A stretch of 64,000 nucleotides of DNA, taken from Thermosediminibacter oceani DSM 16646 (GTDB lineage: Bacteria > Bacillota > Thermosediminibacteria > Thermosediminibacterales > Thermosediminibacteraceae). Under the pieces are notes generated by a model, which worked only from the letters and a program-made list of their open reading frames with translations, made no database searches and had not been told where the DNA came from. A program made the position numbers and the translations under genes. Positions within the stretch are counted from its first letter, which is position 1; the number at the start of each line of letters is the position of its first letter. This document shows positions 20,867 through 50,534 of the stretch, one piece after another. The stretch spans positions 868,001 through 932,000 of the forward strand of contig NC_014377.1 in assembly GCF_000144645.1 (NCBI RefSeq), given 5' to 3'.

Positions 20867-21193
20867 ATGGTGGGAATGATTATCAGGTTTATCGTATCAG
20901 CTTTAGTTTTGATGCTCATTAGCTTTTTGTTACCCGGTTTTCAGGTTGCAGGTTTTACGGGAGCTCTAATCGCAGCCATCGTAATCGCTATAATGGGCTT
21001 TATCGTTGAAAGCATACTCGGAGAAAAGATTTCACCTCAGAGTCGGGGAATTGTGGGTTTTATTACCGCAGCGGTCGTAATATATTTTGCCCAGTTCCTG
21101 GTACCGGCTATGAAAGTAACCTGGTGGGGAGCTCTTCTTGCTTCGCTGGTGATCGGTATAGTCGACGCTTTCGTACCTACGGAACTACGATAG
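20867..21193 (+). CDS. Phage holin family 4 / YvlD-like membrane protein
   Basis: The 108-residue protein has four membrane helices (about residues 4-22, 30-48, 62-80 and 86-102) and the YvlD-type loop ESILGEKISPQSRG. These proteins are called holin-like from sequence similarity only; most are chromosomal and are not lysis proteins. ATG at 20867 follows GGAGGGAAAGAT. The adjacent gpr gene begins 12 bases after its stop, so they share a transcript. A sporulation or germination link is possible from this position but not shown. Confidence 0.8.
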   Translation: MVGMIIRFIVSALVLMLISFLLPGFQVAGFTGALIAAIVIAIMGFIVESILGEKISPQSRGIVGFITAAVVIYFAQFLVPAMKVTWWGALLASLVIGIVDAFVPTELR

Positions 21194-21205
21194 GGGGGAT
21201 AAATT

Positions 21206-22174
21206 ATAAACATTAGAACTGACCTTGCAATAGAAGCCCGGGAGATGACCGGAAAAGAAGAGATCCCGGGCGTGCTTATTGAAACAGAAAAATCTCAGGA
21301 AATAGCGATAACCCGCGTGAGGATTATTAATGAAGATGGCGAGAAAGCCCTGGGGAAGCCAAAAGGATACTACGTTACACTGGAAGTACCGAGGCTCAGA
21401 GAGAAGGATCCTAAGTTAACCGAAGAGGTCAGTAAAAATTTAGCCGAAGAATTAAAATTTATGATAAATCTCCCGGTAGAATCGACAGTACTGGTCATAG
21501 GCCTGGGTAACTGGAATGTTACCCCCGATTCCCTAGGTCCAAAAGTGGTTGAAAGACTTATCGTCACAAAACATCTCGTGGAGCTTATACCGGAAAGATT
21601 CAGCCCCCGAAACGGAATAAGGCCGGTATGTGCTCTGGCACCGGGAGTATTGGGAATTACCGGAATAGAGACGGGTGAAATAATAAAGGGCGTCGTGGAA
21701 AGGGTAAAGCCCGAACTTATTATCGTGATCGACGCCCTGGCCTCAAGAAGCCTGGAGAGAATAAGTACTACGATTCAGATTTCCGATAGCGGCATACATC
21801 CCGGTTCCGGCGTCGGCAACAGGCGCATGGGTATTACGCAAAAAGGCATGGGCGTACCAGTAATAGCTATAGGAGTGCCGACGGTTGTCGATGCAGCGAC
21901 TGTCGCCAGCGATACACTGGAAATGTTGATAGCGGAGTTTGAACGCCAGGCTAAACCCGGATCCGAATTTTATAAAATGCTGCAGACTTTGAACAGGGAG
22001 GAAAAATACCAGCTAATCCGGGAAGTACTTTCTCCATTTGTCGGTGAACTGGTAGTAACGCCCAAGGAAATAGATTCGCTTATAGAAAATATTTCCAAAA
22101 CCCTATCCGGCGGCTTAAATCTCGCCCTTCATCCCGGAATATCCTACGAAGAGGTCAGTACTTTTCTTCAGTGA
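21206..22174 (+). CDS. gpr: GPR spore endopeptidase, probable ATA start
   Basis: Gpr is the germination protease that degrades small acid-soluble spore proteins. The 322-residue reading includes the conserved segments VIGLGNWNVTPDSLGPKV, FSPRNGIRPVCALAPGVLG and HPGSGVGNRRMGI. The family N terminus (I/V)RTDLA(x)E is present as NIRTDLAIEARE, but no ATG, GTG or TTG precedes it: TAA at 21200-21202 closes the frame. ATA at 21206 lies seven bases after GGGGGG (21193-21198) and would give M-N-I-R-T-D-L. The first ordinary start, ATG at 21245, would delete that segment. Confidence 0.85.
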   Translation: MNIRTDLAIEAREMTGKEEIPGVLIETEKSQEIAITRVRIINEDGEKALGKPKGYYVTLEVPRLREKDPKLTEEVSKNLAEELKFMINLPVESTVLVIGLGNWNVTPDSLGPKVVERLIVTKHLVELIPERFSPRNGIRPVCALAPGVLGITGIETGEIIKGVVERVKPELIIVIDALASRSLERISTTIQISDSGIHPGSGVGNRRMGITQKGMGVPVIAIGVPTVVDAATVASDTLEMLIAEFERQAKPGSEFYKMLQTLNREEKYQLIREVLSPFVGELVVTPKEIDSLIENISKTLSGGLNLALHPGISYEEVSTFLQ

Positions 22175-46420: not shown

Positions 46421-47053
46421 ATAGAATTAACACCTAGACAAATGATGATAGTTGACATTGTAAAAAAACACGAACCAATAACCAGTGAAGAAATAGCGGC
46501 AAAGCTCAATATTACAAGAGCCGCTTTAAGGCCCGACCTGTCCATTCTTACCATGGCGGGTATCCTCGAAGCCAGGCCGCGGGTGGGTTATTTCTATGCC
46601 GGCAAGAATACGAAGAGCCTGCTGGCTGAAAAGATAAGGAGCATAAAGGTCAGCGACATTAAGGCTGTGCCTGTTGTGATAAAAGAAGAAACATCAGTAT
46701 ACGATGCTATCGTGACACTGTTTCTGGAGGATGTCGGTACGCTTTTTGTTGTCCAGGAGGACGGCAGCCTGTGCGGTGTGGTTTCGCGAAAAGACCTGCT
46801 CAAGATAGCGATGGGAAACGCCGATATAAGGCAGATACCCGTGAGCGTAATTATGACCAGAATGCCGAATCTGGTCACAGTAACGATGGAGGAAAGCGCT
46901 TTTGATGCAGCTCGAAAAATAGTCGAACATCAGGTAGACGCCCTACCTGTGGTTAAGCCGGAAGAGTTTGAAGGGAAAGTAAAATACAAAGTTGTAGGCA
47001 AGGTTACCAAGACCACAATAACCAGGCTTTTTGTTGAATTGGGAAGAGGTTAA
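46421..47053 (+). CDS. ccpN: CcpN-like repressor (HTH plus CBS pair), probable ATA start
   Basis: The 210-residue protein has an N-terminal helix-turn-helix ([17 protein letters not shown]..., [27 protein letters not shown]) and two CBS domains. This matches CcpN (YqzB), which represses gluconeogenic genes and senses ATP/ADP. The family start ...IELxxRQ corresponds to ATA at 46421, eight bases after a GGAGG (46408-46412). A TTG at 46391 lies upstream of the SD, and the next ATG (46442) is 25 bases too far. ppsR follows after 14 bases, as in Bacillus. Confidence 0.87.
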
Positions 47054-47067
47054 AGGGGGGATTCAAA

Positions 47068-47889
47068 ATAGTTAGTTTAGGTGAACCTGTAATTTTTGCC
47101 GTATCAGACTCTATAGGGGAAACGGCTGAGCTGGTTGCTCGGGCTGCTGCGGTGCAGTTCAATTCCGGGCACGTGGAGATAAGAAGATATCCATTCGTGA
47201 CAGACCTAGAGTATGCCAGGGAAGTAATAGAGGAAGCCAGGAAATTAAAAAATTGCGCAATAGTTTGTACAATAGTGCTGCCTGAAATCAGGAAAAGCTT
47301 AGTAGAGCTCGCTGAAGCCAACAATATCCCTATTATAGACATTATGGGACCAATGATGGACATTGTTTCTAAAATAACCAGCGCCAGGCCAAAACTCGAG
47401 CCAGGTCTGGTGAGGAAGATCGACGAAGACTATTTCAAAAAAATAGAGGCGATAGAATTTGCGGTAAAATATGACGACGGTAAGGATCCGAGGGGCCTTG
47501 CCAAAGCCGATGTGGTTCTAGTGGGGGTTTCCAGGACTTCGAAAACACCGCTGTCTATGTATCTTGCCCATAAAAGGCTTAAGGTGGCCAATCTGCCTCT
47601 CGTGCCTGAAGTTTCCCCTCCCGAGGAGCTGTTTCAACTACCTCCCGGGACCGTCATAGGCCTTACAATAAACCCTGAAATCCTTTATAGGATTCGGCGG
47701 GAGAGGTTAAAAGCTTTGGGACTTAGCAGCGATGCTACGTATGCCAGTATGGAGAGAATTTTAAAAGAGCTTGAGTATGCCGATGGTATAATGAAAAAAA
47801 TCGGCTGCCCCAGGATCGACGTTTCTAACAAGGCAGTCGAGGAAGTCGCTGCCAGAATCCTGGAAATCATCAGGAGGGGAGAAGACTGA
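47068..47889 (+). CDS. PPDK regulatory protein PpsR (DUF299), probable ATA start
   Basis: The 273-residue enzyme is the bifunctional ADP-dependent kinase and Pi-dependent phosphorylase that turns pyruvate phosphate dikinase off and on. The family N terminus [19 protein letters not shown] is encoded but no ATG, GTG or TTG precedes it; ATA at 47068 lies seven bases after GGGGGG (47055-47060). The first ordinary start, GTG at 47152, would remove 28 residues including this motif. The P-loop-like [15 protein letters not shown] is intact. The gene overlaps ppdK by one base. Confidence 0.88.
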
Positions 47890-50534
47890 TGAAAAAATAC
47901 GTTTTTCAGTTTAAAGAGGGAAGAGCTTCAATGAAAAATCTGCTGGGCGGCAAGGGTGCCAACCTGGCAGAAATGATCCATATAGGCCTTCCTGTACCTC
48001 CGGGCTTTACGGTGACTACCGAGGCGTGTACGCGATACTACAAAGAAGGACAAAAAATTGCCGAAGATATCCTCGAACAGACCTTTGATGCCCTTCGAGA
48101 ACTGGAGCAGGAGACCGGTAAAAAGCTGGGAAATCCCGATAACCCGCTGCTGGTCTCCGTCAGGTCCGGAGCGCCGATATCCATGCCGGGCATGATGGAT
48201 ACCATACTAAATCTAGGCTTGAATGATGAAACGGTCGAGGGTCTTGCCCGTTCGACGGGTAACAGGCGTTTTGCCCATGACTGCTACCGCAGGTTTATAC
48301 AGATGTTCGGGAATGTGGTGCTGAACATAGAACACGAGAGATTCGAGGATATCATAAGCGGCGTCAAGAAAAGGAGGGGCTTTGCCCTTGATACTGAACT
48401 GGGAGCCGAAGACTGGCAGGATGTCATAGAGCAATATAAGAACCTGGTGCTTAAGCATACCCGCCGGGAATTCCCACAGGACCCAAGAGAGCAGCTTGTG
48501 ATGGCGATCGAAGCAGTATTTCGTTCCTGGAACAACCATAGAGCTATCATTTATAGAAAAATAAACAAAATACCCGACGAACTGGGAACTGCAGTAAACG
48601 TCCAGGCTATGGTGTTCGGAAACATGGGAGAAGATTCCGGAACCGGAGTAGCCTTTACGAGAAATCCCGCGACGGGAGAAAAGGAAATTTACGGAGAGTT
48701 CCTGCTCAATGCTCAGGGCGAAGACGTAGTGGCGGGGATCAGGACCCCGAGAAATATAAAAGATATGGCTGCCCTTATGCCCGACGTCTACCGGCAGCTG
48801 ACGGATGTTTGCGCTCTTTTAGAAAAGCACTATAAGGATATGCAGGACATCGAATTCACCGTAGAAAAAGGTAAACTGTACCTACTCCAGACCCGCAACG
48901 GAAAAAGGACGGCAGCAGCCGCGGTTAAAATAGCCGTAGATATGGTAAAGGAAGGCCTGATTTCCAAAGAGGAGGCCGTGCTGAGGGTTTCGCCAGAGCA
49001 TGTAGTTTCTCTGCTGCACAGGAGGATAGACCCCGAAGCTAAAGTGGAAGTTATTGCAAAGGGATTGCCTGCTTCGCCGGGAGCGGCCTGGGGTCATATT
49101 GTCTTTGACCCCGACGAGGCTGAAACTCTGGGGCAGCAGGGCCAGAAGGTCATCCTCGTAAGAACCGAAACCACCCCCGATGATATCCACGGCATAGTCA
49201 TGGCCCAGGGTGTACTAACCAGCCGTGGCGGTATGACCAGCCATGCCGCGGTAGTGGCCAGGGGAATGGGTAAACCCTGTGTGTGCGGTTGCGATGCTAT
49301 TTCTATTGACTTAGAAAAAGAAGAGTTTAGGGTTGGAGATCTTGTCGTAAAGAAGGGAGATATAATTTCGATAGACGGCTCAACCGGTCAGGTAATACTG
49401 GGACAGGTGCCAATGATAGACCCCGTTCTCTCGCCGGAGTTCAAAGAACTTCTGGGATGGGCCGATGAATTCAGGGTGCTTTCCGTGCGGGCAAATGCTG
49501 ATACGCCGGAGGACGCAAGGGTCGCCAGGGATTTCGGCGCTGAAGGTATTGGTTTGTGCCGGACCGAGCACATGTTCATGGGTCAGGACCGCCTGCCGGT
49601 GGTACAGGAGATGATTATGGCCGAGACCAAGGCAGAGAGGGAGAAGGCGCTGGCTAAATTGCTGGATTTCCAGCGGCAGGATTTTGAAGGCATTCTTGAA
49701 GCGATGCGGGACCTGCCGGTGACGATAAGGCTTTTAGATCCACCGCTTCACGAATTCCTGCCCAACGCGGAAGAGCTCATCCAGGAAATTGCGGAGCTTA
49801 AGGCAGCGGGCGATGAGGAAACCCTGAAGAGAAAGCAGGAAATCCTCAAAAGAGTAAAGGCTCTCGGCGAATTTAATCCTATGCTTGGTCTGAGAGGATG
49901 CCGTCTGGGGATACTATACCCGGAAATTTACGAAATGCAGGTCAGGGCTATCTTTCTGGCAGCGTGCAGCCTGGCTAAAAGGGGCATTAAGGTGTATCCC
50001 GAAGTGGAAATCCCTCTTGTGAGCAACGATAACGAACTGAAGCTGCTGAGAGAACTTGTAGAAAACATCGCGGCCCAGGTAATGAAAGAAGAGGAGATAA
50101 AAGTCGATTACAGCATAGGTACGATGATAGAAATACCAAGGGCGTGCATAACCGCCGATGAACTGGCCCGTTACGCAGACTTTTTCTCCTTCGGCACCAA
50201 CGACCTCACCCAGACCACCTATGGCTTCAGCCGCGACGACGCCGAAGCCAAGTTCCTACCATATTATATAGACCATAAAATCCTGACGGAAGATCCCTTT
50301 ATAGTTCTGGACCGCAGGGGTGTGGGATATCTTATGAAAACCGCCGTAGGCCTGGGAAGAGGGGTCAAAGAAAACCTTACCGTAGGTATATGCGGCGAGC
50401 ACGGAGGAGAACCGAGTTCCGTAGAGTTCTGCCATGAGATAGGTCTCGACTATGTGAGCTGCTCGCCTTACAGGGTTCCGATAGCGAGGCTTGCTGCGGC
50501 TCAAGCCGCCTTAAAAAATAAAAAGAACTCTTAA
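47889..50534 (+). CDS. ppdK: Pyruvate phosphate dikinase
   Basis: This 881-residue enzyme interconverts pyruvate, ATP and Pi with PEP, AMP and PPi. It has an ATP-grasp domain (GGKGANLAEM, SVRSGAPISMPGMMDT), the swivelling phosphohistidine domain with GGMTSHAAVVARGMGKPC (catalytic His) and the PEP/pyruvate TIM barrel (GLCRTEHMF, FGTNDLTQTTYGFSRDD, GICGEHGG). The Thr before the catalytic His is present (MTSH), the target of PpsR. The upstream ccpN and ppsR link it to gluconeogenic control. Its terminator has been split by an insertion sequence. Confidence 0.97.
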   Translation: MKKYVFQFKEGRASMKNLLGGKGANLAEMIHIGLPVPPGFTVTTEACTRYYKEGQKIAEDILEQTFDALRELEQETGKKLGNPDNPLLVSVRSGAPISMPGMMDTILNLGLNDETVEGLARSTGNRRFAHDCYRRFIQMFGNVVLNIEHERFEDIISGVKKRRGFALDTELGAEDWQDVIEQYKNLVLKHTRREFPQDPREQLVMAIEAVFRSWNNHRAIIYRKINKIPDELGTAVNVQAMVFGNMGEDSGTGVAFTRNPATGEKEIYGEFLLNAQGEDVVAGIRTPRNIKDMAALMPDVYRQLTDVCALLEKHYKDMQDIEFTVEKGKLYLLQTRNGKRTAAAAVKIAVDMVKEGLISKEEAVLRVSPEHVVSLLHRRIDPEAKVEVIAKGLPASPGAAWGHIVFDPDEAETLGQQGQKVILVRTETTPDDIHGIVMAQGVLTSRGGMTSHAAVVARGMGKPCVCGCDAISIDLEKEEFRVGDLVVKKGDIISIDGSTGQVILGQVPMIDPVLSPEFKELLGWADEFRVLSVRANADTPEDARVARDFGAEGIGLCRTEHMFMGQDRLPVVQEMIMAETKAEREKALAKLLDFQRQDFEGILEAMRDLPVTIRLLDPPLHEFLPNAEELIQEIAELKAAGDEETLKRKQEILKRVKALGEFNPMLGLRGCRLGILYPEIYEMQVRAIFLAACSLAKRGIKVYPEVEIPLVSNDNELKLLRELVENIAAQVMKEEEIKVDYSIGTMIEIPRACITADELARYADFFSFGTNDLTQTTYGFSRDDAEAKFLPYYIDHKILTEDPFIVLDRRGVGYLMKTAVGLGRGVKENLTVGICGEHGGEPSSVEFCHEIGLDYVSCSPYRVPIARLAAAQAALKNKKNS

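What the first reader, a model, noticed from the sequence alone, without database searches (positions are those of the whole stretch)
47055..47154. ppsR appears to start at an ATA codon
The DUF299 N terminus ([15 protein letters not shown]) is encoded with no ATG, GTG or TTG before it. The frame is closed by TGA at 47035. ATA at 47068 lies seven bases after GGGGGG, the best SD spacing. The first ordinary start (GTG 47152) would cut 28 residues, including the most conserved motif. The same arrangement occurs at gpr and ccpN, so this looks like a recurring initiation mode in this organism.
Basis: partly seen in the sequence, partly recalled or inferred. Interest (0 to 1): 0.75.

Follow-up and report, generated by a model that had tools for sequence, protein, structure and literature searches.

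The report
PPDK regulator starts at AUA codon
A gene for a metabolic regulator really does seem to start at the weak codon AUA instead of AUG, a feature shared by its relatives across many Bacillota, which probably keeps the regulator scarce compared with the enzyme it controls.

Summary
The DUF299 frame has no ATG, GTG or TTG between TGA 47035 and GTG 47152, and ATA 47068 lies 7 nt after GGGGGG. It is not a sequencing error: all eight sampled relatives of the same family carry ATA at that codon behind the same ribosome-binding site. In 183 ppsR/PDRP loci across Bacillota, 66 score as AUA/AUU/AUC starts, 99 as canonical and 18 as ambiguous. ccpN has a start-type codon at one fixed column in 163 of 165 loci, 121 of them AUA/AUU/AUC; gpr has ATA throughout the family. 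infC (AUU, the textbook case) and a trkH gene follow the same pattern. There is no genome-wide excess of such starts in a 464-kb sample, and both initiator tRNAs found have anticodon CAU. So this is gene-specific and lineage-wide, not a special code of this organism. ccpN's AUA start was shown in S. aureus in 2026 (PMC13009471); I found no open-access report for ppsR, gpr or trkH. Most likely mechanism: inefficient, IF3-discriminated initiation by ordinary fMet-tRNA on a strong SD, keeping the regulator scarce relative to PPDK encoded next door. The dosage role is inferred.

The parts
47068..47889 (+). PDRP/ppsR-type coding sequence, 273 codons plus TGA, initiated at ATA; predicted product begins [26 protein letters not shown]
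   Evidence: PF03618 E 1.1e-102; NCBIfam PRK05339 324 bits, cut-off 225; PDB 5d0n E 7.9e-47 from residue 8
47068..47070 (+). ATA start codon
   Evidence: Conserved in all 8 same-family relatives; SD-scored AUH start in 66 of 183 Bacillota loci
47052..47060 (+). extended Shine-Dalgarno element AAAGGGGGG, 7-nt spacer to ATA
   Evidence: Sequence; identical or near-identical in relatives, GGGGGGATTCAAAATA
47035..47037 (+). in-frame TGA that closes the frame upstream
47152..47154 (+). first canonical in-frame start (GTG), rejected as the real start
   Evidence: Removes the conserved N-terminus; codon not conserved: AGC/AGT in 46 of 66 AUH loci, GTG in 8
46421..47053 (+). ccpN, ATA start at 46421, SD GGGAGGGAGG upstream; immediately upstream of the PDRP gene
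   Evidence: NCBIfam CcpN 325 bits from residue 1; start column ATC60 ATA38 ATT23 ATG21 TTG12 GTG9 of 165 loci
47889..50534 (+). ppdK, pyruvate phosphate dikinase, ATG start overlapping the PDRP stop (TGATG 47887-47891)
   Evidence: TIGR01828 1429 bits; sequence
21206..22174 (+). gpr, germination protease, ATA start after GGGGGG 21193-21198 (separate locus, same phenomenon)
   Evidence: TIGR01441 422 bits from residue 4; ATA/AUH and no canonical start in family and most of the order

Best explanation
The PDRP (ppsR-type) gene is translated from AUA 47068 by the ordinary ribosome and ordinary fMet-tRNA (anticodon CAU), helped by a strong Shine-Dalgarno element at optimal spacing and probably by ribosomes finishing ccpN 14 nt upstream. 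Because IF3 discriminates against AUA, AUU and AUC, initiation is inefficient. This likely holds the regulator well below PPDK, which is encoded by the next gene with an AUG start overlapping the PDRP stop codon. Start position: shown by comparison (about 0.93). Inefficient, IF3-sensitive initiation: inferred from infC, sigR and ccpN experiments in other bacteria (about 0.85). Keeping the regulator sub-stoichiometric to PPDK as the selected purpose: inference (about 0.5).
For: Same ATA and SD in all 8 family relatives. Of 66 AUH loci, 22 have no ATG/GTG/TTG from the previous stop (or 40 codons up) to the SDS motif. AUH occupies the SD-defined start in 65 of 117 non-NTG loci, background 8.4%. 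The neighbouring ccpN start column shows only start-type codons in 163 of 165 loci, 62 of which have an in-frame stop within five codons upstream. The infC positive control recovers AUU in this genome and its relatives. Both initiator-tRNA-type genes found are CAU. Kohl et al. 2026 (PMC13009471) measured AUA/AUU starts of ccpN, cvfC1 and citZ in S. aureus at about 10% of AUG in poor medium. PMC5472188 shows IF3 repressing a non-canonical start that keeps SigR below its operon partner. ppdK lies directly downstream in 63 of 66 AUH loci against 57 of 98 canonical ones.
Against: No protein or ribosome data for this organism. The ppdK association is confounded by phylogeny: the independent-pairs test had too few informative pairs. 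Canonical starts occur in 99 of 183 loci, so AUH is not required. AUH at ccpN and AUH at ppsR do not co-occur beyond chance (p 0.71). Start calls rest on a simple SD score of my own.
Confidence: 0.85

Rival explanations
1. Translation starts at GTG 47152 and the upstream similarity is untranslated or a decayed remnant.
For: GTG 47152 is the first canonical start in frame.
Against: It would remove the first 20 Pfam positions, including the SDSxGET motif that is invariant or nearly so. The codon is Ser (AGC/AGT) in 46 of 66 AUH relatives. Protein-level conservation extends upstream to about residue 8, also against maize PDRP 5d0n.
Confidence: 0.03
2. ATA is a sequencing or assembly error for ATG.
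For: A single base separates ATA from ATG.
Against: Eight independently assembled relatives of the family carry ATA at the same codon, several orders use ATA/ATT/ATC there, and G001 is a separately sequenced species of the genus.
Confidence: 0.01
3. Ribosomes enter the frame from ccpN by frameshifting, giving a fused or re-framed product instead of initiating at ATA.
For: ccpN ends 14 nt upstream and the two are in different frames.
Against: The distance from ccpN stop to ppsR start ranges from -20 to +161 and falls in all three frames across the 62 AUH loci measured. AUH starts have their own strong SD.
Confidence: 0.03
4. The organism carries an altered initiation system (special initiator tRNA or relaxed IF3) that makes AUA a general start codon.
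For: Three AUA genes in one 64-kb window, plus infC and trkH AUH starts elsewhere.
Against: No excess of SD+AUH over SD+control codons in a 464-kb sample: 2.3 hits per 1000 codons against 1.7-4.1 for controls. Both tRNAs matching the initiator pattern have anticodon CAU. The same genes carry AUH in other lineages.
Confidence: 0.03
5. AUH at ppsR is merely tolerated (nearly neutral), not selected to lower expression. This accepts the AUA start and rivals only the dosage part.
For: At least 20 switches between AUH and canonical starts on the ppsR tree. No co-occurrence with ccpN AUH.
Against: ATA kept throughout the family with a strong SD. In ccpN the third base changes among A, T and C at least 28 times, against at least 11 changes between AUH and AUG (not a formal test).
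Confidence: 0.35

Closest known systems
infC (IF3) AUU/AUC/AUA start with IF3 autoregulation
   Same: AUH start conserved behind an extended SD; AUU found in this genome too
   Different: infC feeds back on its own translation; PDRP does not act on initiation
ccpN AUA/AUC start (Kohl et al. 2026, PMC13009471)
   Same: Adjacent gene, gluconeogenesis/PEP-node regulator, AUH start, extended SD
   Different: Shown by Ribo-Ret and reporters in S. aureus; ppsR is not mentioned in that paper
sigR GUC start in Streptomyces (PMC5472188)
   Same: Non-canonical start lowers a regulator relative to its partner encoded by the next, overlapping gene
   Different: GUC rather than AUH; sigma factor and anti-sigma partner
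pcnB AUU start in E. coli (Binns and Masters 2002, known to me by title from the reference list of PMC13009471)
   Same: Weak AUH start limiting expression
   Different: Different gene and phylum; not tested here

Membership tests
PPDK/PEP-synthase regulatory protein family (PF03618, DUF299) | Full-length profile match above cut-off | tested here: met
   PF03618 positions 1-256, 343 bits; PRK05339 324 bits, cut-off 225
PPDK/PEP-synthase regulatory protein family (PF03618, DUF299) | P-loop GVSRTSKTP and N-terminal SDSxGET motif | tested here: met
   Both present; the P-loop residues are invariant and SDSxGET invariant or nearly so in 16 homologues
PpsR sensu stricto (PEP synthase-specific) | NCBIfam equivalog NF049928 cut-off of 350 bits | tested here: not met
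   149.8 bits; neighbour is ppdK, so PDRP type
Genes with IF3-discriminated AUH start codons (infC, pcnB, ccpN type) | AUA/AUU/AUC at the SD-defined start with no canonical alternative | tested here: met
Genes with IF3-discriminated AUH start codons (infC, pcnB, ccpN type) | Conservation of the non-canonical start across species | tested here: met
   All 8 family relatives; 66 of 183 Bacillota loci
Genes with IF3-discriminated AUH start codons (infC, pcnB, ccpN type) | Lower expression than the AUG version | not testable with these tools
   Shown for ccpN, cvfC1 and citZ in S. aureus only (PMC13009471)
Genes with IF3-discriminated AUH start codons (infC, pcnB, ccpN type) | Response to IF3 level or infC fidelity mutations | not testable with these tools
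   Needs an in vivo or reporter assay

The most novel reading that the evidence does not exclude
Clostridial Bacillota have a small, old set of regulators and related genes (infC, ccpN, PDRP/ppsR, and in this order gpr and trkH) whose AUH starts are kept by selection and make them jointly sensitive to IF3 or initiator-tRNA status, tying translation-initiation fidelity to the PEP/pyruvate switch and to spore outgrowth.
Probability: 0.2. Interest if true: 0.8.

Novelty: new member of a known kind. Interest (0 to 1): 0.55.

Why it matters
Gene finders that accept only ATG/GTG/TTG will truncate or misplace conserved AUH genes; here the cut would remove the most conserved motif of an enzyme regulator. 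Three further genes (PDRP, gpr, trkH) beside infC and ccpN would show that AUH starts are an old and repeatedly used way of limiting certain proteins in Bacillota. The comparative series gives ready test cases, because close relatives differ between AUH and AUG.

Tried and rejected
Sequencing error: rejected by conservation. Start at GTG 47152: rejected. Frameshift from ccpN: rejected, gap varies in all frames. UAU initiator tRNA: none found; both pattern matches are CAU. Genome-wide AUA mode: two counts on 464 kb gave no excess (an earlier, cruder count agreed). Link between ppsR-AUH and ppdK adjacency: strong raw association (Fisher 2e-8), but the phylogenetic pairs test was uninformative, so kept only as a lead. 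Link between AUH at ccpN and at ppsR: none (p 0.71). FAD-oxidoreductase ATA candidate (L034:187): relatives have ATG there and own has TTG two codons later, ambiguous. trkH AUH outside the order: mostly canonical.

Full report
WHAT WAS CHECKED. The frame is closed by TGA 47035, has no ATG/GTG/TTG before GTG 47152, and ATA 47068 follows GGGGGG (47055-47060) by seven bases. The protein is a PPDK regulatory protein of the DUF299 family: PF03618 E 1.1e-102, with profile position 1 at window 47092, and NCBIfam PRK05339 at 324 bits. It falls short of the PEP-synthase-specific PpsR equivalog, and ppdK follows immediately with overlapping TGATG, so PDRP is the better name. The genome is 2,280,035 bases in one contig. 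Its nearest named relative is Thermosediminibacter litoriperuensis: L153 lies on a 91,340-base contig, the same length as G001:C11. That the window is T. oceani is my recollection of genome size, not a test.

IS THE ATA START REAL? In all eight sampled relatives of the same family (G001-G008) the ATA and the preceding GGGGGGATTCAAA (or a one- to few-base variant) are kept. The only ATG/GTG/TTG codons before the conserved motif are a GTG without SD three codons after the ATA in three of them and an SD-less TTG upstream in some. In the wider order, several species have ATA at the same place and others have ATG, GTG or TTG nearby. I extended this to 183 distinct loci across Bacillota. Start candidates were scored by SD pairing and spacing with a handicap of 4 kcal for AUH (H = A, C or U) codons. 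66 loci are AUH (27 ATT, 26 ATA, 13 ATC), 99 canonical and 18 ambiguous. Taking only the codon 6-8 nt after the best SD, 65 of 117 loci without an NTG codon there have ATA/ATT/ATC, against 8.4% in the same genes' interior; the binomial value is not a fair probability because the loci are related. 22 of the 66 AUH loci lack any canonical codon from the previous stop (or 40 codons upstream) to the motif. The state changes at least 20 times on the tree.

THE PARALLELS. For ccpN the start column is fixed by the alignment (I/M/V/L-E-L-T-x-R-Q). Its codons in 165 loci are ATC 60, ATA 38, ATT 23, ATG 21, TTG 12, GTG 9 and two others, while the neighbouring Leu column uses the full synonymous range. 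62 of these loci have a stop within five codons upstream. Only a start codon explains such a column. Kohl et al. 2026 (PMC13009471) demonstrated the AUA start of ccpN in S. aureus by retapamulin profiling, found it conserved in B. subtilis, and measured about 10% of AUG activity in poor medium and up to 30% in rich medium; that part is therefore known. gpr has ATA with no canonical start in own and in all eight family relatives, and AUH in most of the order. infC has AUU after GGAGGTGA in this genome and its relatives, a positive control. A trkH-type gene beside infC has ATC/ATT/ATA at one codon in 15 genomes of the order, own included, but is mostly canonical elsewhere.

IS IT A MODE OF THE ORGANISM? 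No. In 464 kb of the genome, SD+AUH sites that beat every canonical start are no commoner than SD plus control codons: 2.3 per 1000 AUH codons against 1.7-4.1 for ten control sets (one search agrees). The two loci matching the initiator-tRNA anticodon pattern are both tRNA-Met with CAU. The set of genes is small and gene-specific.

MECHANISM. Shown by comparison: the start position and its conservation. From established work: non-canonical starts are discriminated against by IF3 and are inefficient (infC, and sigR with GUC in PMC5472188; ccpN reporters in PMC13009471). Inferred: the PDRP gene is translated at a low rate from AUA, possibly aided by ribosomes leaving ccpN, so that a catalytic regulator stays far below PPDK, its substrate, encoded by the next, AUG-started gene. 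This resembles sigR, where a non-canonical start keeps the regulator below its overlapping partner. In support, ppdK follows the PDRP gene in 63 of 66 AUH loci against 57 of 98 canonical ones, but a phylogenetic pairs test had too few informative pairs. A joint ccpN-ppsR control is not supported: their AUH states do not co-occur (45 of 61 against 60 of 86, p 0.71).

NOVELTY. The phenomenon is known (infC, pcnB, ccpN, cvfC1, sigR). I found no open-access paper on non-canonical starts of ppsR/yqfL, and none of the papers that came up treats gpr or trkH this way (gpr and trkH were not searched for by name, and subscription journals are not in the library). So these are new members of a known kind, with broad conservation.

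Noticed in passing
L273 (minus strand; own genome C1:1369528, next to infC): A TrkH-type K+ uptake gene has ATC behind AGGAGGCGATCGAAA, and ATC/ATT/ATA at the same codon in all 15 genomes of the order examined, own included; mostly canonical in other orders.
   Followed up: yes
L034:187 (own genome C1:248187): A FAD-dependent oxidoreductase has ATA after a strong SD in this genus, ATG at that codon in five relatives of other genera, and TTG two codons downstream; the real start is unclear.
   Followed up: partly
G063, G135, G162 (places): Some Bacillota carry two PDRP-type genes in near tandem (about 1-2 kb apart), suggesting separate regulators for PPDK and PEP synthase or for two PPDKs.
   Followed up: no
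ccpN of Bacillus-type loci such as L137 and L230: The SD itself (AAGGTGGTGAG) contains in-frame GTG codons three and four codons before ATC, which would attract annotation to the wrong start.
   Followed up: no
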